The notes under the pieces are model-generated. The model saw only the letters and a list, made by a program, of their open reading frames with translations, did no database searches and had not been told where the DNA came from. The position numbers were made by a program, and so were the translations under genes. This document shows positions 5,279 to 24,863 of a stretch of 61,433 nucleotides of DNA, piece after piece. The stretch is from Bacteroidales bacterium (GTDB lineage: Bacteria > Bacteroidota > Bacteroidia > Bacteroidales > Tenuifilaceae). The stretch is from contig JACABB010000035.1 in assembly GCA_013376985.1 (NCBI GenBank), positions 1-61,433 of the forward strand, given 5' to 3'. The stretch's first letter is position 1, and the number at the start of each line of letters is the position of its first letter.

Positions 5279-5294
5279 AATTAGTTTCTAATAG

Positions 5295-5323: not shown

Positions 5324-5336
5324 TAAATCTAAAAAA

Positions 5337-6704: not shown

Positions 6705-7896
6705 CCATCCTTTTTTCTATTTTGAGCCGAATATTCATGTTAATATTGGTCAACCCAACATTGTTTTAATATACAATTATACGACTGCAAAGGAAAGAGT
6801 TATTAATAATACCCCTTTCTATTTAAGAGTTAAACAGCTACTTTCTGAATATGAATTTGGGTTCTATATTGATCAAGATGAATTGTATGGAATCTGCCTG
6901 ACTTTGAAAGATGATTTGTTGGGAGATATTATTGACATCAAAGATGGTAAACTCCCTTTCTTAATACCACCCAATTTTTTTAAGGTTGAAAAAAGCAGAA
7001 GTTATCTATCCGAAAATGGAATCAGAAATTTTAAGGATAATATACTTGATTATATATTTAATTTGGATTTTTATATGGGTCTTGCGCTTTCTAAATCAAA
7101 TAGAAATACATTTCCTCACTTATACCCTGATAATATAATAAAAGAAATATGCTTTGATGAATGGAACAGCTGTATTAATGATTATAAGATTCGTACTAAC
7201 TTACAATCAATAAATATTTATATAGCAAGTAGCATTAATGAAAGTCCTATTTTTATAAAACGACTGGAAGAATCATTCGAATCAACTTATATAAATATAC
7301 ATATCCCATATAATTTATCAAATGATTATGTAGGCTCTTACAATAAACTACTATACTTCCCTTCCTCCAAAATAGAAGATACTAGAGTGCTTAGAAATTT
7401 CGTAAATGAAGTTTCAGAATCTGATCGTATTATTTTCATTGTCGAATCAGAAAAACATTTTTCTATTGTTGAGAAAATAGCAAGTAAAAATTCTTTAGAT
7501 AATTATAGCGTTTATCCTCATTTTAATGGGAAAAATAATACGTTCTTTCAATCGAATGTTTATATGAGACATGCTGATTTGCTAGAAGATAAACCATCAA
7601 TGATTGACTTATTCAGAAACTCAGAACTCAACTCAAATGATTTTGGAAGGATTGTTATCGATTCTTTTGGTAACTACCAAACAAATGTACTGGGTGAACC
7701 TCTTGGAAATTTGAAAAATGAGAATCTACAAAAAATAGTTTTTAACTGTCTTTCCAGCACAAATTCTACTTGGTTTCAAACTAGGAATAGAATAATACCT
7801 TGTTCTGAATGTATATACAATCAAATTTGCCCTCCAATTTCCAGCTATGAAAGATCTATGAATAAAATGGATTTATGTTGGAAAAACTTATCTTAG
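6685..7896 (+). CDS. pseudo-rSAM partner protein, GG-Bacteroidales system
   Basis: A 403-residue protein that looks like a radical SAM enzyme without the CxxxCxxC cluster motif, so it should not cleave SAM. Its C-terminus keeps a SPASM-like motif, PCSECIYNQICPPISSYE, almost the same as the end of the fused cluster 2 protein. Its N-terminus (FFYFEPNIHVNI) aligns with the part of that fusion starting near residue 437. It overlaps the maturase gene by 20 bp; an inner ATG at 6694 is an equally good start. It probably presents precursor to, or forms a complex with, the maturase. Confidence 0.85.
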   Translation: MNTMKYNHPFFYFEPNIHVNIGQPNIVLIYNYTTAKERVINNTPFYLRVKQLLSEYEFGFYIDQDELYGICLTLKDDLLGDIIDIKDGKLPFLIPPNFFKVEKSRSYLSENGIRNFKDNILDYIFNLDFYMGLALSKSNRNTFPHLYPDNIIKEICFDEWNSCINDYKIRTNLQSINIYIASSINESPIFIKRLEESFESTYINIHIPYNLSNDYVGSYNKLLYFPSSKIEDTRVLRNFVNEVSESDRIIFIVESEKHFSIVEKIASKNSLDNYSVYPHFNGKNNTFFQSNVYMRHADLLEDKPSMIDLFRNSELNSNDFGRIVIDSFGNYQTNVLGEPLGNLKNENLQKIVFNCLSSTNSTWFQTRNRIIPCSECIYNQICPPISSYERSMNKMDLCWKNLS

Positions 7897-7935
7897 TAGA
7901 TTAAAATAATGTCCTTCTCCTAAAATAATGAAAAG

Positions 7936-10239: not shown

Positions 10240-10260
10240 TAATCATTTAACATTTAGACA

Positions 10261-11559
10261 ATGAACACAAAATATTGCAACCTGATTTCTCTAATCATGC
10301 TAATGTCAATCAGCGGTTCTTTGTTTGCACAAATAAATACGACTGATAAACAGCTAGATGTTCTGTTAATCCAAGGAGGTTATAATGAAGTTATTTCAAA
10401 GTGCTCTGAAATAGTTAAGACGGATAGCCTAAACCCAGAAATCTACTTTAAACTTGGCTTGGCTTATCAAGCCTTGATGCTAACGGATAAATCGGTTGAA
10501 GCTTATCAGAGATCGGTTAAACTAGCTCCTGATACTATAAAGTACAGCCTATCACTTGCCAAGGTTTACTATAGTATCGGAAAAACAAAAATAGCTCAAC
10601 CAATCTTTACTAAACTTTGCGCTCAGGACTCATTAAATTGGATGTACTGCTTCTACCTCACCGATATATATATGCAGAAAGGCTTATACAAGAATGCTTT
10701 GCCAATCTATAGCAGATTTTATGCTCAAGATACCACAAACACGTTATATATAGATAAATTAGCCTTCTGCTATCTTAGAATGGAGAACTATGATAGAGCA
10801 ATCAGCCTGTATGAAAAATCAAAATTGCTGAATAGTAAAAATATCACAGCCCTAAAAAATTTGAGCTATTTATATTTTAGAAAAAACATGATTGACACCG
10901 CAATATACCAACTTAACAAGGGCATTGAGTATGATTCAACTGATATGGACTTATTTTTTCGAAGAGCAGAGATCTACTACTCCAAAGACTATCACTTCAA
11001 ATCACGACCAGATTATTTAAGGGTTCTCGAGTCAGGTGATTCATCCAAGGTTATCTTGAAAAAAATAGGAATCGGTTTGGCGTATAACGATCAACCTATA
11101 GACGCTTTAAATTACTTGTTACCTTCATACCAAAAAGATTCCAGCGATTATGAAACCACCAGCTACATTGGGCAGTCATACTATAAACTTAAACAATATA
11201 GAAAGAGTATTAAGTACTACGACAGGGTACTAAAAATACTCATGCCGATTTCAAAGCAGGTTGATTACACTAATATACTATTAGCGGACAGCTATAGAGA
11301 TACCAGTTTATACAACGAGGCAATTAAATATTACACGAAATCGCTTGATACGAAATACGCTCCTAGAATTTGCTTAACAATAGCAAATCTTTACGATGAA
11401 AAAATTAGGAACTACGATAAAGCCATATTCTACTACCAGCTGTTCTTCAATAACTATCAAAAAAATGAGTATTTCAAGGATGAGTATATTGGAAATATCA
11501 GAAAACGTCTTAATTGGCTAATTGAAAATAAGGATAAGAAGAAAGGAAAAAATACTTAA
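10261..11559 (+). CDS. exported TPR-repeat protein of cluster 1
   Basis: A 432-residue protein with a signal peptide (MNTKYCNLISLIMLMSISGS, then LFAQ) and tetratricopeptide repeats through the rest, such as AYQRSVKLAPDTIKYSLSLA and AISLYEKSKLLNSKNITALK. The C-terminus is lysine-rich. It starts 21 bp after the permease stop and closes the cluster 1 operon. A periplasmic scaffold for peptide export, cleavage or uptake would fit; there is no enzymatic domain. Confidence 0.8.
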   Translation: MNTKYCNLISLIMLMSISGSLFAQINTTDKQLDVLLIQGGYNEVISKCSEIVKTDSLNPEIYFKLGLAYQALMLTDKSVEAYQRSVKLAPDTIKYSLSLAKVYYSIGKTKIAQPIFTKLCAQDSLNWMYCFYLTDIYMQKGLYKNALPIYSRFYAQDTTNTLYIDKLAFCYLRMENYDRAISLYEKSKLLNSKNITALKNLSYLYFRKNMIDTAIYQLNKGIEYDSTDMDLFFRRAEIYYSKDYHFKSRPDYLRVLESGDSSKVILKKIGIGLAYNDQPIDALNYLLPSYQKDSSDYETTSYIGQSYYKLKQYRKSIKYYDRVLKILMPISKQVDYTNILLADSYRDTSLYNEAIKYYTKSLDTKYAPRICLTIANLYDEKIRNYDKAIFYYQLFFNNYQKNEYFKDEYIGNIRKRLNWLIENKDKKKGKNT

Positions 11560-11730
11560 GGTGCAAGGTGACCTGAAAAAAGGGAGTAAGCAAAAAACCT
11601 TCATAGAATAGGCTCTGCTGGTCAGCATGAGATTTATTTTGAGGATGAGTTGTTTTAGCAATGTCACTAAAGCACCTTTGAATCTGGGCGTTATTGGGGG
11701 AGATGTAATGGTATTAATACGGGTTTAATT

Positions 11731-11795
11731 AGTCTTATTCTAGGAAAATTCCATTTTTTTGAATTTTTAGAGCATTTTTTAAAGTTTTAGAGTAC
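11731..11795 (+). repeat. imperfect direct repeat, copy 1
   Basis: Aligns with 18603-18668 with one gap (AGTCTTATT..., then runs of TTTTTTAGAGCA-type units). Together with the 11681/18511 and 11813/18475 matches it shows that the spacers after clusters 1 and 2 are related. Confidence 0.7.
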
Positions 11796-11812
11796 GACAA
11801 GGCATTTTTTAA

Positions 11813-11838
11813 ACGTTTAAACGTTTCCGAGATGGAGA
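11813..11838 (+). repeat. 26-bp inverted repeat, left copy
   Basis: Exact reverse complement of 18475-18500; it starts ACGTTTAAACGTTTCCGAGA. The ACGTTTAAACGT part is itself palindromic. The pair brackets cluster 2. Confidence 0.8.
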
Positions 11839-12567
11839 CGTAGAAAAACGGTAAAAAACGATTCGGTAAACGTTTACCCCTATAAAAAAATGCCTCCTGA
11901 AGAGTGAGTAGAACAGCACTAATCGGTAAGGGCATTACGCCTCCACCCCGCTGCTCAGATTGGGCGGTATAATACATGCTAAGTATCAACACTGACTATT
12001 AAAGCTAAAAAATAGCGTAGCCGATATAGCGGTATTACTCAGTACTACTTACGGGTTACTCCATAGCTACTACCCAATTATTACCAATTTATTACTACTG
12101 TTTTACAAATACTTAACAAAATAACCTTATAGGAACACTCGAAAAACCTGAAAAAAACGAAAATAGGAATAATACTATTACATGAAAGTTACCTACCAAA
12201 ACAGAAGAGCCCTTACAGGAAATGGTAAGGAAGAGATTAATTCATTTCTGCTTCCTTTTTACTACTAAAGTACTTTCCTAATATTTGAGGGTTCAGGCTA
12301 TGATTTTCTGACAGTAACCACACTGCAAAAAATACTTGGTTTCTACGAAATATTAGTTCATGAACGTAGAAACCGGGCTTACAAGCCCATCGAAGGTAAT
12401 AAAATGAAAGGTTAGTTTTGAGCAAGTTTAGAATTAGCTACAAAGGGCTTCCTTCAATGTGTAAGTAAATAAAAAAGACCTTATATTTCATCACTACCAT
12501 AAAAAATTGCCACAAATTATTCAATATATAAATATTAATTATATTATAAAATAAACCATAATTTAAT

Positions 12568-12600
12568 TTTGCATTAATAAATATTTTTTTATTATGTTTG
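12568..12600 (+). promoter_or_regulatory. cluster 2 promoter, -33 TTTG and -7 TATGTTTG
   Basis: TTTG at 12568-12571, a 21-bp spacer, and TATGTTTG at 12593-12600 match the Bacteroidota sigma consensus well. Transcription would start near 12606, giving a leader of about 75 nt. Confidence 0.65.
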
Positions 12601-12609
12601 TTGTACGAA

Positions 12610-12625
12610 AATTGCTTAAGCAATT
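12610..12625. promoter_or_regulatory. 16-bp perfect palindrome at the predicted transcript start
   Basis: AATTGCTTAAGCAATT lies a few bases after the predicted start site of cluster 2. It could be a repressor operator, or a 5' hairpin protecting the mRNA. Cluster 1 has a different palindrome (TTAACCGGTTAA) in the comparable place. Confidence 0.55.
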
Positions 12626-12679
12626 AGCAGTTTCATGTATGAGTTTTTTAAATAATTGGGTAACTAAAAAATTTGAGAA

Positions 12680-12853
12680 ATGAAAACAAAATTGAAATTA
12701 ACTTCCTTACATGAAAAAGGAATTGAAAAGCTAGAGGTTAGAAAACTTCAAAGTATTAATGGTGGCTGTCCTCCCGGTATATGCTCTAATAAAGATGGGA
12801 GTAAATCTTGTACCAACGAACAGCAATACCATGCTTGCTATTCAATTGAATAA
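12680..12853 (+). CDS. GG-type peptide precursor 1, cluster 2
   Basis: A 57-residue precursor. The leader MKTKLKLTSLHEKGIEKLEV is followed by RKLQSINGG, the double-glycine cut site at residues 28-29. The core starts CPPGICSNKDG and holds four Cys (CPPGIC, then KSC and HAC). It is shared in form with the second precursor at 12939: the first 14 residues are identical and so is GGCPPGIC. The fused maturase 373 bp downstream should act on both. Too short for routine ORF calling. Confidence 0.85.
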   Translation: MKTKLKLTSLHEKGIEKLEVRKLQSINGGCPPGICSNKDGSKSCTNEQQYHACYSIE

Positions 12854-12938
12854 TAACACATTTTGATCGTTTTATGTTTCGAAATGATCGATTTGTTAAT
12901 TAGCCAATAGTTTTTATTCATCAAAATAACCAAAAGCA

Positions 12939-13109
12939 ATGAAAACAAAATTGAAATTAACCTCCTTACATGAAAAAGGAGTTGAAAAACTAGAAGTTGA
13001 AAAACTTCAAAATATTAAAGGAGGTTGTCCTCCTGGCATATGTAAAGCTCCCGGACAGGGATCATGTAACACAACAGAGTCTTTCCATGATAAGTTTTCT
13101 GACTGGTAA
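12939..13109 (+). CDS. GG-type peptide precursor 2, cluster 2
   Basis: A 56-residue paralogue of the 12680 precursor. The leader MKTKLKLTSLHEKGVEKLEV and KLQNIKGG are nearly the same; the core starts CPPGICKAPGQ and holds three Cys (CPPGIC and GSC) before a Phe/His/Trp tail. Leader and CPPGIC are conserved while the rest of the core has drifted, the usual pattern for one enzyme acting on several substrates. It is followed by a strong terminator-like hairpin and then the maturase. Confidence 0.85.
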   Translation: MKTKLKLTSLHEKGVEKLEVEKLQNIKGGCPPGICKAPGQGSCNTTESFHDKFSDW

Positions 13110-13147
13110 AAGAGGTAGAATAGTAAAAAACGATCTTAAACATTAGC

Positions 13148-13186
13148 AAAAATTCCAATAAATAAAATTCAATTATTGGAATTTTT
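13148..13186 (+). terminator. intercistronic terminator between precursors and fused maturase
   Basis: AAAAATTCCAATAA (13148-13161) pairs perfectly over 14 bp with TTATTGGAATTTTT (13173-13186), followed by more T. Read-through must supply the maturase mRNA, so precursors should be made in excess. Confidence 0.75.
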
Positions 13187-13226
13187 TCATTAAAGAGAAC
13201 CCTATATAACCTAGAATTTTTTTAAG

Positions 13227-15815
13227 ATGGGGAAGAACACTTTAGTAAGTACCACAAATTACTCATACCTATATAGCAATAGCAAAAAGGTATTGATTCT
13301 ACTTCCCACTGAATTAAAAGAAATATGCGAAGCCTACATTGCAGGGGGAAATGGCGACAGTAGTCCTAATACAAATACTTACCAAGTTAATAAATTCTCA
13401 TTCCTTCTAGATAATGGATTCTTTAAAGATGGGGACAATTTTATCGAGCTGTCGGTGGAGCAAGCTCGGCTAAAAATGCCTAAAGCGATTGCATTTGAAA
13501 CTACAGAAAAGTGTAACTTGGAGTGTACCTACTGCACCTTTGGAAAATTCTACCATAAAACCGATTACCAACGATCTGGTAAAGAAACAAGAGTTAGCAC
13601 TGCAATTACCTACATAGACTATATTCACAAGATATTCGGAAAAATCCCAAGCAGCTTTGGCTTTTATGGGGGTGAGCCCCTTCTAAACTTTAAGCTTATA
13701 TCAGGAGTTGTTGAATACCTAAAAAAGAAAGCTCCAGAGCAAAATTTTAGATTTGATATGACGACAAACGGTTTGCTTGTAGATAGGTATGCAGACTTTT
13801 TAGCATCCAACAATTTCTTTATACTAATAAGCCTAGACGGAAATGAGCATCAGAATCGCTTTAGGGTATTCCCTGATGGAACAAATTCGACACAAGCAGT
13901 GATAAATAGTATACTTTCTATTAAAAAAAAGTATCCGGATTTCTTTAGTAAAAGAATTTCATTCGCTGCTACCCTCCCTGCGAACGGCTCAAAGGATGAG
14001 ATTGATAAGTTCTTTCTTGAAACATTTCAGCAACTACCCGTATATAATAGAATCCGGGAGAATGACCTGAATGAAAGTAACAGGGAGGAGTTTAACTATA
14101 CCTTTGGGAACCAAGTAAAAAGCGAGAAAGGCGTTGATTACTTTTTAAACCAAAGCTATAGCAGCTATTTCAGATTACTAGAAAAGGAAAGGAAAGAGCA
14201 AGCATATATCTTCCCGAATGGAACATGCCTCCCTTTTGAGGTGAGGCATCTAATAACAGCCCAAGGAGCAATTCTACCATGCGAAAAGATAGACTATAAG
14301 TATAAGCTGGGGACTATAGAAAATGAGGAAATAAACATCAACCCAGAAGAAATTGCCCGCTCGTATAACAGCTATATTCAAAAAACGATGCAGCTGTGTA
14401 GCAGCTGCTATACAACCAATTGCTCCCTGTGCATGTTTTTAATCGAGTGGGAGAATGGTTATCCCGTTTGTTCAAACTACCTGAGTCAAAATAGCATTGA
14501 AAAGGTAATATCTGGCATTGAAAACGAATGTGCGAATGATACGCTAGGTACTGATGAGTTATGGTTTTATATTGAATCGTACGTATATACTTTTCATGGC
14601 AACGGGGTTTCAATGCTATACAATTCTATTAATGGCAAAAGCGTAAAGGTGCAGTCTTCAGCCATTATTTCGCTACTAAAAAAACTTGATAGCAACATCA
14701 ACTCCAACGTGGTAAGGGTCAAAAAGGAGTTCTATTACGCCCAAGATCATTTCGATTTTTTCGAAGTCTTGAAAAGCGAATTCATGGCTGATACCATTGA
14801 TGGTAGAATAAATCCAAATATGCCTTTCATACCCAAAAATAGTATTAGAGTGGCAGATTCAACCATTAAAGGATTACAATTTGCTAATATAAGGGAAAGT
14901 GAGAAGGGGTATATATTACAGCATATTACTCGGGTAGACTTATACCTTGATACCGCATTCGATCATCTAAGCAGCTGCGAAAGAAAACAAATTTTAGCAT
15001 CAGGGAGTAAAATCGATCTGAATATAAACAAAATAATGTCTCTATTCGAAAAGCTTTTAAAACTGGAAAAGGTTTTTCTCTACTCAAACGATGTGCTGCA
15101 ATACCAGAGGGTAGTAAATGAGATAAAATCTACCCGTAAAAGATTAGAGATCAATAGCAGCACTGTGTTTTTTATAAACCTAAACTATTCCGAAATTTTT
15201 GCTAATGGTTCACTGGATGGGATAAAATGCGAAAGCATAAGGGCTATTGACTCAGAAAACTGTATAATCAGCGTAGCGGTTAATACGCCTTTAGTAAAAG
15301 AAAGATTTGCAATAGCGTTGGATTTCTTCAAACAGCTTTCAGTACCAGTAATATACACCTTTTTAATTGAGCACGAATCTGATATTGAGCTATTTGATAA
15401 GCTGGCTTCTGAGTATAAGATAGATAATTACGAGATTGGGGTTGTTTTTAATGGGGCTAACTTTGGCATGTTTGAACAGAATGTATTTGTAAATGAGGGG
15501 GATATTTTGAGCTCCCGGGTAGTTGCAAAAGAGGTAAATATAAGGAGGGAGCTGAATTCGAATTTTTTTGGCAAAGCTGCGATTCTTCCCGATGGACGGG
15601 TTAGCTGCGATCTACAGAAACCGACCTACGCTGAAATTTCTGACAGCTCACTATATAGGCTTATTTATGCTGAAATTACTGATGGGGAGGGCTTATGGAA
15701 ATTAACCCGGGATAAAGTTGAACCATGCAAGGCTTGTATCTATAGGTTTCTCTGCCCACCCATATCAGACTACGAGCTGAAATTGCAACGTTACAACCTA
15801 TGCAATTGTAATTAA
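13227..15815 (+). CDS. fused radical SAM maturase and pseudo-rSAM protein
   Basis: An 862-residue fusion of the two enzymes that are separate in cluster 1. Residues 1-430 are the maturase: CNLECTYC gives C96, C100 and C103, with GFYGGEPLLN and a SPASM-like tail (NGTCLPF, LPCEKIDY, CSSCYTTNCSLC). From about residue 437 (DELWFYIESYVYTF) it matches the pseudo-rSAM partner and ends with PCKACIYRFLCPPISDYE. It should modify the precursors at 12680 and 12939. The fusion implies that the two parts work as a 1:1 complex. No frameshift or stop lies at the junction. Confidence 0.9.
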   Translation: MGKNTLVSTTNYSYLYSNSKKVLILLPTELKEICEAYIAGGNGDSSPNTNTYQVNKFSFLLDNGFFKDGDNFIELSVEQARLKMPKAIAFETTEKCNLECTYCTFGKFYHKTDYQRSGKETRVSTAITYIDYIHKIFGKIPSSFGFYGGEPLLNFKLISGVVEYLKKKAPEQNFRFDMTTNGLLVDRYADFLASNNFFILISLDGNEHQNRFRVFPDGTNSTQAVINSILSIKKKYPDFFSKRISFAATLPANGSKDEIDKFFLETFQQLPVYNRIRENDLNESNREEFNYTFGNQVKSEKGVDYFLNQSYSSYFRLLEKERKEQAYIFPNGTCLPFEVRHLITAQGAILPCEKIDYKYKLGTIENEEININPEEIARSYNSYIQKTMQLCSSCYTTNCSLCMFLIEWENGYPVCSNYLSQNSIEKVISGIENECANDTLGTDELWFYIESYVYTFHGNGVSMLYNSINGKSVKVQSSAIISLLKKLDSNINSNVVRVKKEFYYAQDHFDFFEVLKSEFMADTIDGRINPNMPFIPKNSIRVADSTIKGLQFANIRESEKGYILQHITRVDLYLDTAFDHLSSCERKQILASGSKIDLNINKIMSLFEKLLKLEKVFLYSNDVLQYQRVVNEIKSTRKRLEINSSTVFFINLNYSEIFANGSLDGIKCESIRAIDSENCIISVAVNTPLVKERFAIALDFFKQLSVPVIYTFLIEHESDIELFDKLASEYKIDNYEIGVVFNGANFGMFEQNVFVNEGDILSSRVVAKEVNIRRELNSNFFGKAAILPDGRVSCDLQKPTYAEISDSSLYRLIYAEITDGEGLWKLTRDKVEPCKACIYRFLCPPISDYELKLQRYNLCNCN

Positions 15816-15839
15816 GTAAAGCCTGAACCTACTAGTACG

Positions 15840-18269
15840 ATGAAAAAAAGCTACTACACCATACTATTATCCCTACTCCCATTTATTGCGCTATCGCAAC
15901 AGCAAAGAGCGTATAAGATTATTGGAACTATTGCCGATTCTGCGGATCAGAAAGTAGTTCCTTACGCAACGATAACAGCGGTGAAGCTTCCTGAGAAGTC
16001 GATAAAAAAGCAGCTGGCAGCCCAAGCGGATGGGACGTTTGATATGCCGATAGATTCGGCGGGGGAGTACTTACTAACAATTAGCGCATTAGGGTACAGA
16101 ACCGTATCAAAAAATGTCTTAGTAGAAGGAGGACACTATTTTAACGACTTGGGAATAGTACCAATAAATACGAATTCCATCGAATTGAAGCCGGTTACCA
16201 TTACAGCCTACAAGCCGCTGGTTAAAGTTGAATCGGATAAGCTTGTTTATAGCGTAGAATCAGATCTTGAAGCGAAAACATCGAATGGGCTAGAGGTTAT
16301 AAAAAAAGTTCCAACCCTTGTTGTTCGCCCTGACGAAAAGATACAGGTAAACGGGAGCACGAATGTTAAAATATATATAAATGGAAGGACATCCAGCATG
16401 GCGACAAAAAACCTCGGGGATTTTCTACAAAATACGCCTGCAAGCCTAATAAAAAGCATAGAGGTAATCTCAAAACCCGGGGCAAAGTTCGACGCTGAGG
16501 GTACAGGGGCTATCATAAATATTGTGATGAGAAAAAAACCGATAGGCTATAGCTGCTCTTTAAGCAGCAGCGTGAGCTTTTCAAGTAGCCCGTATGCTAG
16601 AAACGGCCTAAATTTTACAACCGCATTCGGCAGGTTCGGGGCTTCAATTAATATTTTAAACAAAAGCTATTACCCGGAAGAAATTTATGATAGAAACATC
16701 TATAGGGAGAATTACGGCGATGATGATCAAAAATATACGAATGGGGTTGGGAAAGTCCACAATAGATGGGTTATGCTAGTTCCAAATATTGATATCAGCT
16801 ATGATATTGATACGCTAAACCTTATAAACCTAAGCTTAAATTCGGCATACAACAGGTCAAAAGATCGGTATAGCGCTAATGTTGGTATAGAAAATACTAA
16901 CAATTTGCTACAACACTCCTATTCGTACAACAGCTCGTACTTAGATCTTGAAAAAGAGCTGAATGGGAGTATCAGCTACCAGAATATTTCTAAAAAGGAT
17001 AAAAGGAAAATCCTGACGCTTTCCTACCAAATCGATCATTTGCCTATGGAGCTAAGGAATGAAATGGACATTGATAGCATAAAGGATTACAAATCGGCGA
17101 AACAGATCTCTCGGAATAATGAGAGCTGGACGGAGCATACCTTTCAGGTTGATTACACGCTCCCCCTTTGCAGTAAAGGGGAGGTTGAAACAGGTTCAAA
17201 ATACATCTCAAGGGAGGACAGAAGCTCTTCGCATATACTTGACTACCAGTATTCAACAAATCAATTTGTTGAGAATACGGGGATGAATAATGACTTTAGC
17301 TATAAGCAGGGTATTCTGGCAGCATATCTTACATACAGCCTAAAAATTGATAGGTTAAGCTTTAAGCTGGGCTTACGTGCCGAAGATTCAAAGGTAAGCT
17401 GCGTATTTACCTCTGCTAATACTACAGGGTTTAATAATTCGGTGAAAGAGCTTGTTCCAAGCACCAGCATTAGCTACCAGCTAACCGAAGGTCAAAATCT
17501 GGGGCTCTCCTATACGAAAAAAATTAAGCGTCCTAGCGTATGGCATTTAAACCCCTACGTTGACAAAAGCGATCCGAATAATTTTCATTCGGGCAACCCT
17601 AGTATTAAAGCTGAGCATTTTCATAGCCTTGAGCTAAGCTATGGGAGCTTCGGGCAATTCGGTAACTTTAGTATTAGCCTTGACTACATGAGGTCAAACG
17701 ATGGGATAGAGCAAGAGATTAAGCAGGTAGATGCAGGGACAATTCTGACTACCTTTGATAATATCGCCAAAGTTCAGAATTGGATTAGCTCCGCATCTCT
17801 AATGCTAAAAATAGGAAAAGATATTCGATTACAGCTAAGTTCATCCGTAAACTATAACGATTTAGAGAATAAAAACACGACCGCTAGAGGTTTAGGCTAC
17901 GACATATCCTCTGATATTGAATATCGAATAGTAAACGGGTTGAAATTTTCGGTATCAGGTTTTTATTTACAAGAAGCAAAAAGTTTGCAGAGTAAAACTT
18001 CGGCACTATACTATACAAACTTTACCTTAAAGAAAGAATTTTTACAAAAAAGATTAATCGTGTCACTATTGTATAGTAATGCTTTTTGGAAACATAAGAA
18101 TACCAGCTATGAAGTATTTGATGATACATTCTATCAGGTAACTAAGGAGGTTAGGCAGGGGTATCTGTATGGTTTTAGGATCAGCTATAGCTTTGGAAAA
18201 CTGGAAAATGAGATAAAAAAGGTTGTACGTGTTATTAACAATGACGATATCAAAGGGAAAGGAAAATAG
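15840..18269 (+). CDS. outer-membrane beta-barrel receptor, TonB-dependent-like
   Basis: An 809-residue outer-membrane protein. Signal peptide MKKSYYTILLSLLPFIALSQ, then a carboxypeptidase-regulatory-like beta domain (about 25-110), a plug domain (about 130-230, with KVPTLVVRPDEKIQVNGSTN and AKFDAEGTGAIINIVMRKK), and a large barrel rich in alternating aromatic strands. It lies 24 bp after the fused maturase, so it likely moves, or is targeted by, the cluster 2 peptide. It takes the place that the permease and TPR protein hold in cluster 1. No SusD partner is present. Confidence 0.85.
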   Translation: MKKSYYTILLSLLPFIALSQQQRAYKIIGTIADSADQKVVPYATITAVKLPEKSIKKQLAAQADGTFDMPIDSAGEYLLTISALGYRTVSKNVLVEGGHYFNDLGIVPINTNSIELKPVTITAYKPLVKVESDKLVYSVESDLEAKTSNGLEVIKKVPTLVVRPDEKIQVNGSTNVKIYINGRTSSMATKNLGDFLQNTPASLIKSIEVISKPGAKFDAEGTGAIINIVMRKKPIGYSCSLSSSVSFSSSPYARNGLNFTTAFGRFGASINILNKSYYPEEIYDRNIYRENYGDDDQKYTNGVGKVHNRWVMLVPNIDISYDIDTLNLINLSLNSAYNRSKDRYSANVGIENTNNLLQHSYSYNSSYLDLEKELNGSISYQNISKKDKRKILTLSYQIDHLPMELRNEMDIDSIKDYKSAKQISRNNESWTEHTFQVDYTLPLCSKGEVETGSKYISREDRSSSHILDYQYSTNQFVENTGMNNDFSYKQGILAAYLTYSLKIDRLSFKLGLRAEDSKVSCVFTSANTTGFNNSVKELVPSTSISYQLTEGQNLGLSYTKKIKRPSVWHLNPYVDKSDPNNFHSGNPSIKAEHFHSLELSYGSFGQFGNFSISLDYMRSNDGIEQEIKQVDAGTILTTFDNIAKVQNWISSASLMLKIGKDIRLQLSSSVNYNDLENKNTTARGLGYDISSDIEYRIVNGLKFSVSGFYLQEAKSLQSKTSALYYTNFTLKKEFLQKRLIVSLLYSNAFWKHKNTSYEVFDDTFYQVTKEVRQGYLYGFRISYSFGKLENEIKKVVRVINNDDIKGKGK

Positions 18270-18752: not shown

Positions 18753-18875
18753 CTAATAAATTTCATTATCTTTTAGAGTTGTACCATCACCCTCCCCCTT
18801 TATTTGCAATAACTCTTTTGTTTTAAGGATTTTAAACCCTTTTGCCGCCTTTTTTCTTAGCGTTTTAGTAATCAT
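18753..18875 (-). CDS. small GG-leader-like peptide, copy A, beside CHAT protease
   Basis: A 40-residue minus-strand peptide: a basic start (MITKTLRKKAAKGF), then KILKTKELLQIKGEGDG and an acidic end (LKDNEIY). The ELLQIKGxG block matches the end of GG-type leaders. It aligns with copy B at 19012-19146 through KGFxxLxxxELxQIxGxG. It has no Cys, unlike the cluster 1 and 2 precursors. Real expression is supported by the conservation between the two copies, not by any database match. The longer frame upstream (to 19031) crosses the duplicated promoter and is unlikely to be used. A toxin, signal or protease substrate are all possible. Confidence 0.6.
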   Translation of the reverse strand: MITKTLRKKAAKGFKILKTKELLQIKGEGDGTTLKDNEIY

Positions 18876-18927
18876 GAGTTTTATAAACATTCCGTTTGTT
18901 TTTGTACAGCAAAAGAACACTAACACA

Positions 18928-19038
18928 ATGGTGGTGAATTCTTTTAAATTACAGTTTAATATCCTAATACCCAGAATTCTTTTTTTACTTCCTGTAGGCA
19001 TTTCTCCTAGCCTAATGGGGAAAATCGCCATCCCTTAG
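18928..19038 (+). pseudogene. truncated duplicate of the CHAT gene 5' end
   Basis: The plus-strand frame reads NSFKLQFNILIP... and ends near SPSLMG, aligning with MNSFKLQGNSLVF... LSLSG of the intact CHAT protein at 19216. The sequence before it also matches the 19150-19215 promoter region. It is the left half of a tandem duplication with an offset of 282 bp; the rest of this gene copy is lost. The frame stops at 19036-19038, overlapping peptide copy B on the other strand. Confidence 0.7.
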
Positions 19039-19146
19039 AGTTATAGGAGCACTATCCCCCCCCCTTATTTGCTTTAATTCATTCAGGTTAAGGTTTCTAA
19101 AACCTTTTTTCACCTTCTTTTGTCTCATTTTTTTTAATGTTTTCAT
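19012..19146 (-). CDS. small GG-leader-like peptide, copy B, divergent from CHAT gene
   Basis: A 44-residue minus-strand peptide: MKTLKKMRQKKVKKGF, then RNLNLNELKQIRGGD and a tail SAPITLRDGDFPH. ELKQIRGG has the form of a double-glycine leader end, predicting a core of DSAPITLRDGDFPH without Cys. It starts 69 bp from the divergent CHAT gene, so both share one control region. Copy A has the same plan. Poly-G at the GG site (a run of nine C on the plus strand, about 19056-19064) could slip and change the frame. No modifying enzyme is adjacent; the CHAT protease may be the partner. Confidence 0.65.
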   Translation of the reverse strand: MKTLKKMRQKKVKKGFRNLNLNELKQIRGGDSAPITLRDGDFPH

Positions 19147-19177
19147 AATTTCAGGTTTTAAATTAAACATTTCGGAT

Positions 19178-19185
19178 TATTTTTG
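19178..19185 (+). promoter_or_regulatory. -7 box TATTTTTG of the CHAT gene
   Basis: Matches TAnnTTTG; the transcript would start near 19191, 25 nt before the ATG. In the duplicated copy (near 18893) the box has lost its TA, consistent with a dead promoter there. Confidence 0.55.
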
Positions 19186-19215
19186 CTCTAATTAAAGAAC
19201 ATTAGGACAATAATA

Positions 19216-22023
19216 ATGAATTCTTTCAAGTTACAAGGTAATTCTTTGGTATTCAATTTTTCTGTTTTACTTTTAGCGTGTACTTCTCTTAGCCTATCAG
19301 GGGTAGCAGCTCAGCAAGCTGTAGATACTTGTTACATAAATATTCTTTACGATAGCAGTAGGATTTTCTATGTATCGGGTGATTATAGCAGTGCCATAAG
19401 AGATTTGAGCAAGATTCTCACGCTCAAGGGCAAAATGTCTAGCGATTATAAACCCGAATACTTTAAGGTATATAACAGGTTAGGGTTGGTTTATAGGAGG
19501 CGAGGCGATCTGAGCGAGGCTATTGATTTCTACAAAAAGGCATTGGAAAGCACCTCCGATACCTTTAACTTATCGGTAATCAATTATAACATCGCCAATA
19601 TCTACTCCTTAAGAGGCGATTACTCAAAGGCTATCTACTACAACGAGAATTCCATATCAGTGCTTGAGAAAAGTAATGATGAGAAGAAGTACCGCTATAT
19701 TACTGATATCTACCATAACCTAGGCTACTCATACTATAAGCTAGGAGATTATAATCGTGCTAGAAGTAATTATTTAAAAAGCATTCAGGTATCCAAAGAG
19801 AATCAGCTTGGGGAGAATGGCGATACGTATTATAGTTGTGGACAGGCTTATCAGAAGCTGGATAGCCTAGGCAAAGCCGATTACTGCTTTAGAAAGGCGA
19901 TAAGCTGCTACACCAAGGAGTTTGGCAAAGACCACTACATGACCGGGATGGCGTATATGAACTATGCCTTCTTTTACTCTGAAACAGGAGAGTATGCAAA
20001 GAGCGTACAGCTTTATAAAAGAGCGTACGAAATCTTAGCTAGTACGCTTGGGAGCAAACATCCTTACATGTCATTATGCCTTAAACTCAATGGAAATTTA
20101 TACTACCAAATAGGGGATTACAAACAGGCGTTAAGGTACTACCAGCAATCCCTAGCATCCAAAATATACAGTTTTAATGATAACTCGGTGTACGTAAACC
20201 CAAACTCGGATGTACTCCCTGATATGGACATACTGGATATTCTAAAGTATAAGGCACAGGCTTTTATAAAATTATCGGAGCATGAGAGCAAGGAAGAAAA
20301 CCTTATAGCAGCACTTTCCACGCTTGAGCTTTCCACCGCTTTTACTGAAAGGCTGCGTACGGGTTATCTATACGAGGGGTCTAAGCTACAGCTGGCAGCG
20401 AATGAGCATGAAATCTACCTGCTAGGGGTAAGCGTTGCCCATTCGCTGTACGAAATCTCAGGTGATTCTAAGTACTTGGGTATGGCATTTCGGTACGCCG
20501 AGTACAGCAAGTACGCCGTACTCAGGGAGTTAAAAAATGATGAGATGGCTAAAGGGGTCGCAGGGGTTCCCGATAGCATTAGCAACAGCGAGAGGAGGAT
20601 AGAGCTACAGATAAGCGAGATTAGGATGCAAATTGAAGAGGAGAGTAAGTTGGAACACCCCAACAGGTCGAAGATAGACGGGTGGAATGGGCAGCTGTTC
20701 AGCCTGTCCCAGAACCTTGAGGGGCTGATGCAGAGGCTTGAAAGCAACTACCCCCTATACTACAGGCAAAAGCATAGCAATCAGGTTGTCAATATAGCGC
20801 AGCTGCAGGGAGCAATGGGCGAAAAGGAGGCAATACTTGAGTACGTGCTGGGCGACAGCACGCTATATACATTTACCATTACTAGGGATACATTCCTGCT
20901 GGTAAAGCAGGAAGCCGACAGCACCTTCCGCTCAAGGCTTAACTTTTTAATATACGCTTTGCACAGCGAGTACTCAACGGGTTACTACAAGTACAGGGAT
21001 GCAGCGTATACCCTCTACAGGAAGCTAATCTCCCCGGTTGAACCCCTGCTAAAGAACAAAAACCTACTTATAATTCCGGATGGTAAGCTAAACCGTATTG
21101 CGTTTGATGTGCTCATCGACAGACCGTACCGAGATGGCGATAAACGTGATTACAGAAAAGAATCGTACCTACTACGAAAATACCCGATAGGCTACGCCTA
21201 CTCTGCAACCTTATACAATAACACCCTAGGTAGTACCCGTAAAGGCTCACCCGACTTCCTTGGGATTGCTCCCGATTATAAGAACTCAAAGGACTCACTA
21301 AGAAATATCCCCATAGGGTTACAAAATGTGAGAAAGATTGCGCTGCTAACCTTCGGGAAATCGCTAACTGGGGGTAGCGCAACGGAAGGGGCGTTTAAGA
21401 AGTACTGTAGTAGGTACGGTATCATCCACTTCTACGCACACGGGTTGGAGGATACCCTTAACCCTACTAACTCGAAGCTATTTCTATCCCCTCAAGCCGA
21501 TTCCGCTGACGATGGCTACCTGCACGCATGGGAAGTATACAATATGCAGCTAAACGCAGAACTGGTGGTACTGGGATCATGCTACTCTGGGTCTGGGAGA
21601 CTATCGGAGGGGGAAGGGGTGCTGAGCATAAGCAGGAGCTTTATGTGTGCTGGCAGCCAATCGGTAATCATGTCACTATGGGTAGCATCCGATAGGTCAA
21701 CAAACGGTATGCTAAACGATTTTTACCTGAACCTGCTAAAGGGCATGAGAAAGGATGAGGCGCTGAGGCTTGCCAAGTTGAAGTACCTTGAAGAGACGGA
21801 ATCAATTTTTTCGCATCCCCGTTTTTGGGCTGGTATAGTGGTAAACGGCAACCAAAATCAGCTATACCATCACTGGTACTTAAAGAGAGCGATTCTTGCT
21901 ACTGCCATAATTTTAGGTCTACTCTTTGCTTTTAGGAAGCGAAAAACGATAACCCGCAAACTGCGTAAAGTAGGAAGAACAGAGATAAATAAAACCACAC
22001 AGACCCAGAGAACCTTTCAGTGA
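19216..22023 (+). CDS. secreted, membrane-anchored TPR-CHAT protease
   Basis: A 935-residue caspase-like protein. Residues 1-33 form a signal peptide (NFSVLLLACTSLSLSGVAAQ). Tetratricopeptide repeats fill about 38-330. A helical linker (about 440-530) leads to the CHAT domain (about 600-890) with the catalytic pair H742 in IHFYAHG and C789 in VVLGSCYSGSGRLSEGEG. A membrane segment (about 893-911) and a basic tail (FRKRKTITRK) follow, placing the protease in the periplasm. CHAT enzymes cut specific partners, often when TPRs bind a ligand. The divergent GG-like peptides at 18753-19146 are the obvious candidates for substrate or trigger, by inference. Confidence 0.88.
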   Translation: MNSFKLQGNSLVFNFSVLLLACTSLSLSGVAAQQAVDTCYINILYDSSRIFYVSGDYSSAIRDLSKILTLKGKMSSDYKPEYFKVYNRLGLVYRRRGDLSEAIDFYKKALESTSDTFNLSVINYNIANIYSLRGDYSKAIYYNENSISVLEKSNDEKKYRYITDIYHNLGYSYYKLGDYNRARSNYLKSIQVSKENQLGENGDTYYSCGQAYQKLDSLGKADYCFRKAISCYTKEFGKDHYMTGMAYMNYAFFYSETGEYAKSVQLYKRAYEILASTLGSKHPYMSLCLKLNGNLYYQIGDYKQALRYYQQSLASKIYSFNDNSVYVNPNSDVLPDMDILDILKYKAQAFIKLSEHESKEENLIAALSTLELSTAFTERLRTGYLYEGSKLQLAANEHEIYLLGVSVAHSLYEISGDSKYLGMAFRYAEYSKYAVLRELKNDEMAKGVAGVPDSISNSERRIELQISEIRMQIEEESKLEHPNRSKIDGWNGQLFSLSQNLEGLMQRLESNYPLYYRQKHSNQVVNIAQLQGAMGEKEAILEYVLGDSTLYTFTITRDTFLLVKQEADSTFRSRLNFLIYALHSEYSTGYYKYRDAAYTLYRKLISPVEPLLKNKNLLIIPDGKLNRIAFDVLIDRPYRDGDKRDYRKESYLLRKYPIGYAYSATLYNNTLGSTRKGSPDFLGIAPDYKNSKDSLRNIPIGLQNVRKIALLTFGKSLTGGSATEGAFKKYCSRYGIIHFYAHGLEDTLNPTNSKLFLSPQADSADDGYLHAWEVYNMQLNAELVVLGSCYSGSGRLSEGEGVLSISRSFMCAGSQSVIMSLWVASDRSTNGMLNDFYLNLLKGMRKDEALRLAKLKYLEETESIFSHPRFWAGIVVNGNQNQLYHHWYLKRAILATAIILGLLFAFRKRKTITRKLRKVGRTEINKTTQTQRTFQ

Positions 22024-22058
22024 AACTCTAATCCGTGCCTCCGTGGTGAGCAGCTATC
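21986..22058. repeat. imperfect palindromic intergenic repeat over the CHAT gene end
   Basis: ACCACACAGACCCAGAG and CTAATCCGTGCCTCCGTGGT are imperfect inverted arms around the CHAT stop codon. Sequences of the ACCACGGAGGCACGGAG type are common dispersed palindromes in Bacteroidota. The arms are seen; the family link is from memory. Confidence 0.45.
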
Positions 22059-22980
22059 AATCGCTAAGTCTACTTAGAATCCCTTTAGCTTTTTTATGGT
22101 AATCGTCATTACTATCCACGATAGCCCGAAAGGTCTTAATAGCTTTTTCCTTACTCCCCTCTTTAAGGTAGCAAAGCCCTAAATACCACCTCGCCTGTGG
22201 TGTATAATCAAAATTGCTCTGGCTAGCAATTACCTGTTCGAGGTAACCTGCTGCCTCTCTATACTTGCCAACCTCCATCAAGGATAGACCGATGAACAGG
22301 TTTCTTTCAGCCTCAATGGTTTCCGATGATGGCAAGTCTTTCAGGAGCAGCAGAGCATCGGCATATTCCCCTTCCATATATTTCTTAGCAATACCAAAAG
22401 AGATGTTATTCGGTATGTAGCCATCCATATAATTAAGCGGAGCGTAGTACTCAGCATATAGCCTGTTCTCCAACGAATCGGTGGGTTGAATATTGTACCC
22501 TATTGCTCCACCTATAAAAAGCAGGGCTGCAATGGTAGCGGCAGCAAGCCAGTATTTAGGTTTCATAGTTATGAAATGGATTTTGGGTTTTTTATCAAGA
22601 GGTTCTTTATTAATAAGGGGATTTTCATCAATAGTTTCTTTATCATGATACTCCTGTGAGGCCTCATAGTTCTTGTAAGCCTCCTCCAACTTTCCTTTTA
22701 GGAGAAGTTCGTCCGAAGAGCTATTTGTTTCATTGGGCTGGTTGATCTTATTGAAATCATCCATTCTCTTCTTTAGCCCACGCACAAAATCAGCCCGCTG
22801 GGCTGGGGTCATCTTATTATCATAGAATAATTTAGTGTCGATTTTTAATTTTTCCTCATCGTGAATTCTTGCTAAACGCTTATCCGTGAGAATTGCATCC
22901 GCAATCAAGGACATTGTTTTCCGAGGAAGCTGGCTTAGTATAAACGCTCTAATCATATCCCTGTTAATCTGTAAGCTCAT
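22057..22980 (-). CDS. membrane-anchored TPR protein, possible anti-sigma-like partner of CHAT
   Basis: A 307-residue protein from ATG 22980 (MSLQINRDMIRAFILSQLPR); a longer frame to 23034 begins with an unlikely hydrophobic stretch. The N-terminal 120 residues are cytoplasmic and helical, a membrane segment lies at about 141-161 (LAAATIAALLFIGGAIGY), and the rest is periplasmic with TPRs (LFIGLSLMEVGKYREAAGYL, RWYLGLCYLKEGSKEKAIKT). In other Bacteroidota such proteins stand next to TPR-CHAT genes, often with a sigma factor. Here it converges on the CHAT gene and no sigma factor is present. Partnership is inferred. Confidence 0.75.
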   Translation of the reverse strand: MSLQINRDMIRAFILSQLPRKTMSLIADAILTDKRLARIHDEEKLKIDTKLFYDNKMTPAQRADFVRGLKKRMDDFNKINQPNETNSSSDELLLKGKLEEAYKNYEASQEYHDKETIDENPLINKEPLDKKPKIHFITMKPKYWLAAATIAALLFIGGAIGYNIQPTDSLENRLYAEYYAPLNYMDGYIPNNISFGIAKKYMEGEYADALLLLKDLPSSETIEAERNLFIGLSLMEVGKYREAAGYLEQVIASQSNFDYTPQARWYLGLCYLKEGSKEKAIKTFRAIVDSNDDYHKKAKGILSRLSD

Positions 22981-23278: not shown

Positions 23279-24532
23279 TTAGGGTTGATGTTTTTGGTTG
23301 GTCGTTACAGTAGCAGCCTCTCCCATTAACTTTTGCCTTAGGGCAGCCATGTCAGTGCCGACTTTTTGCTCGACTACTTTAGCATAGATTTGCGTTGTCT
23401 TGATGCTTCTATGCCCAAGCATTGCGCTTACCGATTCAATGGGGACTCCATTGGTAAGGGTTACAGTGGTCGCAAATGTATGACGTGCTAGGTGGTAGGT
23501 CAGCACCTTGGTAACCCCGCAGATATCCCCTAGCTCTTTTAGGTAAGAATTCATCCTTTGGTTTGTCATCACTGGTAGAAGCTTACCTTTGTCTTGAACT
23601 ATCGGATGTTCCTTGTATTTCTCAATTATGCCCAAAGCCTTTGGTAATAGAGGGACGGTTGATTTTACATCTGTCTTTGTACGGCGTATATGTATCCACT
23701 TCTCTCCGTCAATGCCTAGCACAATATTACTTGGGGATAATTTGGCTACCTCTGCGTAGGAAAGCCCTGTATAGCATGAGAATACAAAGATATCCCGGAT
23801 TACTGCAAGGCGTGGAATGGTAATACTCTTTTGCTCTATTGCCAAAAGCTCCTCATTTGTAAGAAAACCACGTTCAACCTCCTTAAATCGCTTTTGGAAA
23901 TGTTTGAAGGGATCATTATCCGTCCATTCATTTTTTAAAGCGAGGTTAATAATTTTTTGAAAATTAGAAATATACTTCAAAGCGGAGTTGTGTTCACAAT
24001 TCTTTGTCTTTTTTAAGAAGTACTCTAAGTTAGTAATGAACTCATAATTAAGCTCGCATAGATACATATCTTTAACCTTATACTGATGAACTATGAATTC
24101 TCTAATATGGTTTAAAGAGGTCTTATATCTTTTAAATGTACCAAGACTAAAATCCTTGCCAATTAATTGGTACATCTGTTGATTGTGATACTCAAAAACC
24201 TGAATAACTGTTTTATCATCTTTCCCTTTGCCCTGATATAGCTTCTTTATTTTATCTGGAGTGACTAACTCTTTTCTATCTATTAGGTTTCGCTGAATTT
24301 CATAAACTTTGTTTTTTAAACTGTCAAGATACAAATTGAGTTCTTTCGCTTCTTGCCCCGTTCCTTTCGCCTTTCCACCTTCCCAGCGATCAGTATGGAT
24401 TCTCCTACTGATAGAAATGTCAGCCCTTTTCCCGTTAACAGTTACCCGCATAAAAATTGGGGCTGTTTTTTTATCGTCCAATTTATCAACCCTTTGATAA
24501 AAGGCTACAGCAAAAGTGTTTTTATGTTCCAT
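23279..24532 (-). CDS. int: tyrosine recombinase (integrase) of the island
   Basis: A 417-residue site-specific recombinase. An N-terminal arm-binding domain (about 8-95, with PIFMRVTVNGKRADISISRR), a SAM-like core-binding domain (about 105-205) and a catalytic domain (about 220-400). Visible catalytic residues: Lys in IHIRRTKTD, HLAR (HxxR), His in MLGHRS and Tyr in TTQIYAKV. The first Arg is replaced within CYTGLSYAEV, as in CTnDOT-family integrases, where loss of Arg I is known. It lies 257 bp from the tRNA-Gln repeat it would recombine. A -7 box TACCTTTG (24566-24573, minus) precedes it. Confidence 0.93.
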   Translation of the reverse strand: MEHKNTFAVAFYQRVDKLDDKKTAPIFMRVTVNGKRADISISRRIHTDRWEGGKAKGTGQEAKELNLYLDSLKNKVYEIQRNLIDRKELVTPDKIKKLYQGKGKDDKTVIQVFEYHNQQMYQLIGKDFSLGTFKRYKTSLNHIREFIVHQYKVKDMYLCELNYEFITNLEYFLKKTKNCEHNSALKYISNFQKIINLALKNEWTDNDPFKHFQKRFKEVERGFLTNEELLAIEQKSITIPRLAVIRDIFVFSCYTGLSYAEVAKLSPSNIVLGIDGEKWIHIRRTKTDVKSTVPLLPKALGIIEKYKEHPIVQDKGKLLPVMTNQRMNSYLKELGDICGVTKVLTYHLARHTFATTVTLTNGVPIESVSAMLGHRSIKTTQIYAKVVEQKVGTDMAALRQKLMGEAATVTTNQKHQP

Positions 24533-24789: not shown

Positions 24790-24805
24790 CTGTTGACCTA
24801 CCAGG
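24790..24805. repeat. right attachment repeat, inside tRNA-Gln 3' end
   Basis: Identical to 1997-2012. It covers the acceptor 3' strand and part of the T arm, so the tRNA remains complete after integration. Confidence 0.85.
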
Positions 24806-24863
24806 ACTCGAACCTAGGCTAACAGAACCAAAATCTGCTGTGCTACCACTACACCATAGGTCA
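24793..24863 (-). tRNA. tRNA-Gln (anticodon TTG)
   Basis: 71 nt, cloverleaf visible: acceptor TGACCTA/TAGGTCA, anticodon stem GCAGA/TCTGT with loop TTTTGGT giving anticodon TTG, and T loop GGTTCGAGTCC. CCA is not encoded. The gene is the island's integration site. Confidence 0.95.

What the first reader, a model, noticed from the sequence alone, without database searches (positions are those of the whole stretch)
18753..19215. Two unannotated GG-leader-like peptides divergent from a secreted TPR-CHAT protease, born from tandem duplication
On the minus strand, 40- and 44-residue frames share KGFxxLxxxELxQIxGxG, the form of a double-glycine leader, then short Cys-free cores (one is GGDSAPITLRDGDFPH-like). 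The duplicated unit includes the divergent control region and the first 30 codons of the CHAT gene, so peptide and protease were copied as one unit; only the peptide was kept intact in both. That selective survival suggests the peptide matters. A peptide-protease pair, where the periplasmic CHAT enzyme cleaves, matures or is triggered by the peptide, would be a system I do not recognise as described.
Basis: partly seen in the sequence, partly recalled or inferred. Interest (0 to 1): 0.85.

Follow-up and report, generated by a model that had tools for sequence, protein, structure and literature searches.

The report
Secreted peptides paired with caspase-like protease
Next to a caspase-like protease gene that is copied many times in one Bacteroidales genome sit tiny genes for peptides that look exportable, and the same pairing, often with a peptide exporter and a membrane-bound gene switch, recurs in related families, which points to a peptide signalling system that has not been tested.

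Summary
Two short minus-strand frames with double-glycine-type leaders lie divergent from a TPR-CHAT gene, in a real duplication. The distal copy looks decayed: it lost the family's start position and its GG reads GEG, so "kept intact in both" is wrong. The family is real. The genome has 13 CHAT genes; all 23 strong peptide hits (E < 1e-5) are divergent from one, at 10 CHAT loci, with leader omega 0.19 and core 0.85. In 60 CHAT loci of other genomes of the order, 19 of 59 CHAT genes have a divergent GG peptide, against 1 of 83 other genes. Best reading: an exported peptide acts on a periplasmic TPR-CHAT protease that acts on a membrane anti-sigma, as Csx29-Csx30-CASP-sigma does inside cells. 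The anatomy is shown; the mechanism is inferred, and no sigma gene sits at the window locus.

The parts
18753..18875 (-). Distal GG-leader-like peptide, 40 aa (MITKTLRKKAAKGFKILKTKELLQIKGEGDGTTLKDNEIY); start position changed and GG split to GEG: probably decaying
   Evidence: (E 1.3e-14 with the family model)
19012..19146 (-). Proximal, intact double-glycine-leader peptide, 44 aa (MKTLKKMRQKKVKKGFRNLNLNELKQIRGG / DSAPITLRDGDFPH)
   Evidence: E 5.7e-22; 70 bp from the CHAT start
18928..19038 (+). Duplicated remnant of the CHAT gene's 5' end (signal-peptide-like, 36 codons, open to the duplication border)
19216..22023 (+). TPR-CHAT protease: signal-peptide-like N-terminus (by eye), helical/TPR region about 38-445, CHAT 595-878 with His742/Cys789, C-terminal helix 883-934 that reads as a membrane segment
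22057..22980 (-). Convergent partner P: about 140 N-terminal residues, one hydrophobic helix (about 142-163), C-terminal TPR; anti-sigma-like by the gene context of its relatives only

Best explanation
The two frames belong to a family of exported, signal-type peptides that form one system with the neighbouring TPR-CHAT protease and the convergent membrane TPR protein P. Shown by sequence: (1) the peptides are coding genes with a conserved cationic leader ending in GG and a short, never net-positive, fast-changing core; (2) they sit divergent from CHAT genes at 10 loci of this genome, and GG peptides of other sequence lie beside CHAT genes in other families of the order; (3) relatives of the locus often carry P directly behind an ECF-like sigma gene, and some a C39/PCAT exporter with HlyD. 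Inferred: the C39 domain cuts after GG and the exporter releases the core outside the inner membrane; the core binds the periplasmic TPR domain of CHAT and switches its cysteine protease; the protease acts on P, which holds (or held) a sigma factor, so that peptide level becomes a transcriptional response. In this genome the module has been amplified, P has no sigma gene beside it in the amplified copies, and peptide copies are born by tandem duplication and die by decay; core and TPR region differ more between copies than the CHAT domain does.
For: Own genome: 13 CHAT genes; 23 of 23 peptide hits with E < 1e-5 are divergent from a CHAT gene, at 10 loci, nearest copy 67-71 bp from the CHAT start in 8 of these 10. 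Coding: divergence by codon position in the leader 0.259, 0.232, 0.438; omega leader 0.19, core 0.85, over 27 distinct full-length copies from this genome and G002. Other genomes: 19 of 59 CHAT genes against 1 of 83 other genes have a divergent GG peptide (Fisher 1e-7); 23 of 56 loci counting both strands, from 13 other families. Convergent P at 18 of 22 peptide loci against 9 of 31 without (p 0.00023), sigma-P at 14 of 22 against 8 of 31 (p 0.01), PCAT within the fetched stretch at 6 of 23 against 1 of 33 (p 0.015). A sigma-like gene adjoins P in 47 of 80, or 44 of 75 after merging P proteins about 90% alike. C39: 22 of 23 peptide genomes against 5 of 18 (p 6e-6). In the own genome the L033 CHAT has a GG peptide, HlyD and C39-PCAT beside it. 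Cores never net positive (K, R, D, E counted): 27 of 27 genus cores, 35 of 35 distant cores that I listed. Core distance follows TPR distance weakly (Mantel r 0.27, p 0.019) and CHAT-domain distance not clearly (r 0.16, p 0.14). Precedent: TPR-CHAT Csx29 cleaves Csx30, which inhibits an ECF-type sigma (PMC10028731, passages).
Against: No expression, cleavage, binding or secretion data. 33 of 56 sampled CHAT loci show no GG peptide by my pattern, so CHAT does not need one. Divergent order is not fixed: four sampled loci and G003, G004 and G007, two of them congeners, have the peptide on the CHAT strand. In the window's genus P has no sigma gene beside it (1 of 18 P genes, L035, does). Sigma genes of L091 and L146 fall below Pfam's cut-off for region 2 and that of L282 has no sigma match. 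The full set with exporter is seen in few loci; in same-family G022 and G005 the exporter, CHAT, P and sigma are together but my pattern finds no peptide. The P model is poor (pLDDT 61) and matches only TPRs. The Mantel test has 10 loci, is one of eleven uncorrected tests, and leader distance follows TPR as well (r 0.25), so linkage alone may explain it. Peptide genome G143 shows no C39; C39 exporters also serve other peptides, and the genomes are not independent.
Confidence: 0.45

Rival explanations
1. CHAT is a maturation or degrading protease for the peptide: the core is its substrate (second trimming step or removal), and P and sigma regulate the cluster without sensing the peptide through CHAT.
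For: Tight pairing of peptide and protease; many genus cores contain K/R-D or K/R-G near the end.
Against: Convergent P (9 of 31) and sigma-P (8 of 31) also accompany CHAT where no peptide was found, which suggests a role of CHAT apart from peptide maturation; a C39 exporter could already remove the leader.
Confidence: 0.2
2. The peptides are bacteriocins or radical-SAM-modified RiPPs, and CHAT/P serve immunity or regulation.
For: C39/HlyD export also serves bacteriocins; a radical-SAM RiPP cluster lies in the same window (5123-18269); the leader resembles TIGR04149; the L035 CHAT locus has GG peptides next to a radical-SAM-like gene.
Against: TIGR04149 score 12.2 against a cut-off of 25, and the distal copy has no match; genus cores are 9-14 aa, not net positive and Cys-free, unlike the Cys-bearing 42-48 aa bacteroidetocins (PMC6671954, passages); apart from L035 I recognised no modifying enzyme beside the other own loci (read by eye, no family search).
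Confidence: 0.14
3. The peptide is an inhibitor or pro-domain-like brake of CHAT rather than its trigger.
For: Acidic short core beside a cysteine protease; several copies per protease.
Against: A double-glycine leader and the C39 association imply export as a free peptide; nothing here separates brake from trigger.
Confidence: 0.1
4. In this genus the amplified modules are mostly leftovers of spread by integrative elements, with peptide copies on the way to decay and no present role.
For: Decayed peptides and a broken CHAT copy; integrase genes next to P at 3 loci; tRNA-Gln and a 16-bp repeat frame the window module.
Against: Leader omega 0.19 and invariant His/Cys across paralogues; 10 loci keep at least one full-length GG peptide.
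Confidence: 0.09
5. The frames are chance ORFs or an antisense regulatory region.
For: The distal window copy is damaged.
Against: Codon-position pattern, omega, and recurrence in other families.
Confidence: 0.02

Closest known systems
CRISPR type III-E Craspase / CASP (Csx29 TPR-CHAT, Csx30, CASP-sigma)
   Same: TPR-CHAT cysteine protease gene linked, in relatives of the locus, to an ECF-type sigma gene and its likely inhibitor; the window CHAT gives a weak match to the Csx29 model (E 0.0007)
   Different: CHAT here has a signal-peptide-like N-terminus and a C-terminal membrane-like helix, P is a membrane TPR protein (not compared with Csx30 by any search), and a peptide family takes the place of the RNA-guided trigger
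C39/PCAT-exported double-glycine peptides (ComC-type pheromones, class II bacteriocins)
   Same: Leader form, GG, C39 exporter in nearly all peptide genomes tested (22 of 23) and in some of the loci
   Different: The receptor candidate is a TPR-CHAT protease, not a histidine kinase (recalled for ComC); cores are very short and not net positive
TIGR04149 radical-SAM-modified RiPP precursors of Bacteroidales
   Same: Leader ending ELxxIxGG; TIGR04149-like precursors, themselves below the cut-off, lie in the same window (5123, 12680, 12939)
   Different: Still lower scores, core Cys-free, and no radical-SAM gene recognised beside most own loci
Bacteroidetocins
   Same: Bacteroidales, GG leader, PCAT-type exporter (PMC6671954 and PMC10352776, passages)
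   Different: No Cys in the genus cores, 9-14 aa against 42-48 aa
ECF54-type sigma factors with CHAT proteins in their gene context (PMC8999054, passage)
   Same: ECF sigma and CHAT gene linked
   Different: There proposed without an anti-sigma factor, and no peptide is mentioned in the passages seen
RRNPP peptide receptors
   Same: TPR protein with a small peptide gene next to it
   Different: RRNPP receptors are intracellular (abstract of PMC10075063, listing); this TPR protein is predicted periplasmic and carries a protease domain

Membership tests
C39/PCAT double-glycine peptides | Leader with ELxxIxGG-type pattern ending in GG | tested here: met
   met by the proximal window copy, not by the distal one (GEG)
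C39/PCAT double-glycine peptides | C39 exporter in the genome and in the gene neighbourhood | tested here: met
   Own genome 3 C39 genes, one beside another CHAT with a GG peptide; none within the window locus; 22 of 23 peptide genomes; PCAT in the fetched stretch at 6 of 23 peptide loci
C39/PCAT double-glycine peptides | Cleavage after GG and export | not testable with these tools
   needs mass spectrometry
TIGR04149 rSAM-modified RiPP | Model score over the curated cut-off of 25 | tested here: not met
   12.2 bits for the proximal copy, no match for the distal one
TIGR04149 rSAM-modified RiPP | Radical-SAM maturase adjacent to the precursor | tested here: inconclusive
   Maturases some kb away in the window; other own loci only read by eye, L035 has a radical-SAM-like gene
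Bacteroidetocin | At least two Cys in the mature peptide | tested here: not met
   0 of 27 genus cores; 1 of the 35 distant cores listed has any Cys
CASP (Csx29-type) regulation | TPR fused to CHAT with His-Cys dyad | tested here: met
   PF12770 168 bits; H742 and C789 invariant in 13
CASP (Csx29-type) regulation | ECF sigma gene with inhibitor gene linked to the protease | tested here: inconclusive
   Seen in relatives (44 of 75 distinct P genes; several sigmas below Pfam's cut-off); no sigma gene at the window locus
CASP (Csx29-type) regulation | Cas7-11/gRAMP partner | not tested
   no search made
RRNPP receptor | Cytosolic TPR protein, usually with a DNA-binding domain | tested here: inconclusive
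   No DNA-binding domain among the Pfam matches (it lists RNPP_C only as a weak TPR match below cut-off); the signal-peptide reading is by eye, no predictor was run

The most novel reading that the evidence does not exclude
A new class of Gram-negative peptide signalling: C39-exported acidic pheromones are read by a periplasmic caspase-like TPR-CHAT receptor-protease that cuts or unloads a membrane anti-sigma factor to free an ECF sigma. In this genus the receptor-peptide-P module was amplified to about ten paralogues with diversifying cores and TPR domains, perhaps a self/non-self recognition repertoire.
Probability: 0.3. Interest if true: 0.92.

Novelty: new variant of a known kind. Interest (0 to 1): 0.8.

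Why it matters
Peptide signalling in Bacteroidota is little described, and most bacterial CHAT proteases outside CRISPR and gasdermin loci lack known triggers (both from general knowledge, not from a call). A small conserved peptide gene next to the protease gives a concrete candidate ligand or substrate, and the sigma/anti-sigma pair of the relatives gives a measurable output, so the question what switches a CHAT protease becomes directly testable.

Tried and rejected
Tried without gain: NCBIfam and Pfam on the peptides (only matches below cut-off); structure of P (pLDDT 61, only TPR-type matches) and of CHAT (TPR well modelled, 662-826 below 50; the 50 rows shown are TPR-type or other helical-repeat proteins, none named as Csx29); sequence search of solved structures (the 60 rows shown are TPR-type proteins); own-genome search for a sigma of the L091 kind (one good hit on C56, which has its own P in L281), so no shared sigma for the amplified modules was found; tRNA-end repeat on contig C35 (none). 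PADLOC gave only a TPR model for CHAT and nothing for P.

Considered and rejected: chance ORFs (codon pattern); a RiPP of the neighbouring radical-SAM cluster (score; other loci); a bacteroidetocin (no Cys). The claim that selection kept both window copies was rejected (GEG, lost start position, pN/pS near 1).

Limits of the counts. 4 of 60 had too little upstream sequence; one plus-strand hit that looked spurious (L209, which also has minus-strand peptides) was set aside. One search was given 23 peptide genomes (22 of the sample plus G002) and 18 peptide-less ones, not all; 'peptide-less' means none at the sampled locus. One search used 34 hits (own hit C6:78725, with stops, was not taken in), dropped 6 as truncated, masked or broken and 1 as an identical duplicate, and kept the damaged distal window copy. 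The 35 distant cores are a selection; some near-duplicates and the peptides were not put in. The genome contigs sample is weaker: 10 of 80 CHAT genes against 7 of 297 other genes on the divergent strand, and no excess on the CHAT strand (2 of 80 against 10 of 297); one search looked more loosely at 25 of those loci only. Four loci are in both samples. The peptide pattern demands GG and ATG and so misses variants. PCAT-like hits are 13 of 157 sources, one of them the query's own locus and two (L115, L158) short and weak.

Full report
What is in the window. On the minus strand at 18753-18875 and 19012-19146 lie frames of 40 and 44 codons, divergent from a 935-codon TPR-CHAT gene at 19216-22023. 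The peptide gene (but for its last 15-18 bases), the gap and the first 27 codons of CHAT are truly duplicated: 18768-19014 aligns with 19030-19296 at a score of 154, while 500 dinucleotide shuffles reach at most 58. The proximal frame is an intact double-glycine-leader peptide. The distal frame is not in good order: the other 26 full-length copies begin MK, this one has to start at an upstream ATG (MITKTL), and its GG has become GEG. The CHAT remnant between the copies is an open frame of 36 codons, so the peptide is not the only open part. The selection argument for this pair therefore fails.

The family is nevertheless real. The genome (5.26 Mb, 85 contigs) has 13 CHAT genes. A model of 12 peptides finds 26 hits with E up to 1, of which 23 have E < 1e-5; all 23 are divergent from a CHAT gene, over 10 CHAT loci, with the nearest copy 67-71 bp from the CHAT start in 8 of 10. 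Of the other three CHAT loci, L033 has a different divergent GG peptide, C3:115489 only a degenerate remnant with stops, and L035 two other GG peptides more than 1 kb away, near a radical-SAM-like gene. Copies number one to four per locus, several of them broken. Over 27 distinct full-length copies from this genome and its congener G002, the leader has omega 0.19, the core 0.85, and leader divergence by codon position is 0.259, 0.232 and 0.438. This is coding sequence with a constrained leader and a nearly free core. The 27 cores are 9-14 residues, Cys-free and not net positive; the leader carries about +8.

Beyond this genome. Among the 60 genomes, own included, only G002 besides the own genome has strong A1 hits. 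But CHAT genes at 50-56% identity in other Bacteroidales assemblies (L085, L086, L087; kinship not checked) have divergent GG peptides, and so do CHATs at about 26-32% identity (L091, L092, L104, L110, L114, L146). In a sample of 60 high-scoring CHAT loci from 295 genomes of the order, 56 had enough upstream sequence; 19 have a GG peptide on the divergent strand (shuffle expectation 1.45) and 5 on the CHAT strand (expectation 1.75); setting one spurious-looking plus hit aside, 23 loci from 13 other families have one, and 33 have none. With real genes as control the divergent figures are 19 of 59 CHAT genes against 1 of 83 others (Fisher 1e-7). In the genome contigs sample the excess is smaller (10 of 80 against 7 of 297) and absent on the CHAT strand (2 of 80 against 10 of 297). 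Orientation is not fixed: in G003, G004 (same genus) and G007 (same family) the GG peptides lie on the CHAT strand, just upstream of it.

The rest of the system. Downstream and convergent lies P (window 22057-22980, minus): about 140 residues, a hydrophobic helix, then TPRs. P is convergent with CHAT at 10 of 13 own loci and lies 2.4 kb from an eleventh. In the order sample P is convergent at 18 of 22 peptide loci and 9 of 31 without (p 0.00023). In 47 of 80 P genes with enough sequence a sigma-like gene sits directly in front on the same strand, often overlapping; after merging P proteins about 90% alike this is 44 of 75, and 43 of 59 outside the window's genus, against 1 of 18 P genes inside it. 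The L035 sigma passes Pfam's cut-offs for regions 2 and 4 and the L286 one for region 2; those of L091 and L146 do not reach the cut-off and L282's has no sigma match, so for these the label rests on likeness to the others. Some loci have a second P behind the peptide on the peptide's strand (L091, L211, L213, L214). The exporter is the third part: C39-PCAT and HlyD lie beside CHAT and a GG peptide in L033 of the own genome and in L091 and L146. In same-family G011, G022 and G005, PCAT, HlyD, CHAT, P and sigma stand together; GG peptides were found only in G011, on the far side of the sigma gene. PCAT lies within the fetched stretch at 6 of 23 peptide loci and 1 of 33 others (p 0.015). C39 genes occur in 22 of 23 peptide genomes and 5 of 18 others (p 6e-6).

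How it may work. The leader and the C39 association argue for cleavage after GG and export. The N-terminus of CHAT looks like a signal peptide and its C-terminus like a membrane helix (no dedicated predictor was run), so the protease would face the periplasm, where the released core arrives and where the TPRs of P would lie. In type III-E CRISPR a TPR-CHAT protease cleaves Csx30 and relieves inhibition of an ECF-type sigma (PMC10028731, passages). The same three roles are linked here in relatives of the locus, with a peptide in place of RNA. I therefore propose peptide to CHAT to P to sigma. Steps not shown: export, binding, protease activation, action on P, sigma release. At the window locus and the other amplified copies the sigma gene is missing beside P, so their output is open. 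The TPR region differs more between paralogues (mean 0.38) than the CHAT domain (0.24), and core distance follows TPR distance weakly (r 0.27, p 0.019, one of eleven uncorrected tests on 10 loci; leader distance does so too, r 0.25); this fits, but does not prove, co-evolution of ligand and sensor.

Known or new. Nine literature searches (open-access library, listings) showed no paper on GG peptides with CHAT genes. Passages seen: Craspase, non-canonical ECF sigma factors, which note CHAT proteins near ECF54, Bacteroidales RiPP mining (TPR-like genes and PCATs in RiPP clusters; [quoted passage not shown] The parts are of known kinds; the combination appears undescribed in what I could search.

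Against the first version I mended: the extent of the duplication, the wording on P and sigma, the status of the TIGR04149-like precursors, the same-family loci without peptide, the CHAT-strand cases, the number of Mantel tests, and the duplicates in the P count. None of these required a change of odds.

Noticed in passing
window 1997-2012 and 24790-24805; integrase 23279-24532; tRNA-Gln 24792-24863: A 16-bp direct repeat that includes the tRNA-Gln 3' end, with a tyrosine recombinase beside the tRNA, frames about 22.8 kb holding the RiPP cluster and the CHAT module: possibly an integrative element.
   Followed up: partly
window 5123-18269: Two radical-SAM maturase genes near the TIGR04148 model (one over, one just below its cut-off), the second fused to a TIGR04150-like pseudo-radical-SAM part (13227-15815), with three TIGR04149-like Cys-bearing precursors, all below cut-off, at 5123, 12680 and 12939.
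   Followed up: partly
L036 3745-4995 and L037 12222-13163: Related integrase genes lie next to P at two other CHAT loci, L036 also beside two tRNA-Ser genes.
   Followed up: partly
L146 5004-5888: An oligonucleotide-cyclase-like gene (PADLOC E 2e-92) lies between PCAT and the GG peptide in one distant locus.
   Followed up: no
L091 4397-5550: A LytTR-like and a histidine-kinase-like gene (labels from reading the sequence, no family search) lie between PCAT and the peptide-side P.
   Followed up: no
L029 4745-7015: A broken second CHAT copy with its own peptides upstream of the intact one.
   Followed up: no
L030 286-1863: C39 peptidase domain together with a VKOR domain in one protein, beside a TIGR04149-like precursor.
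   Followed up: no
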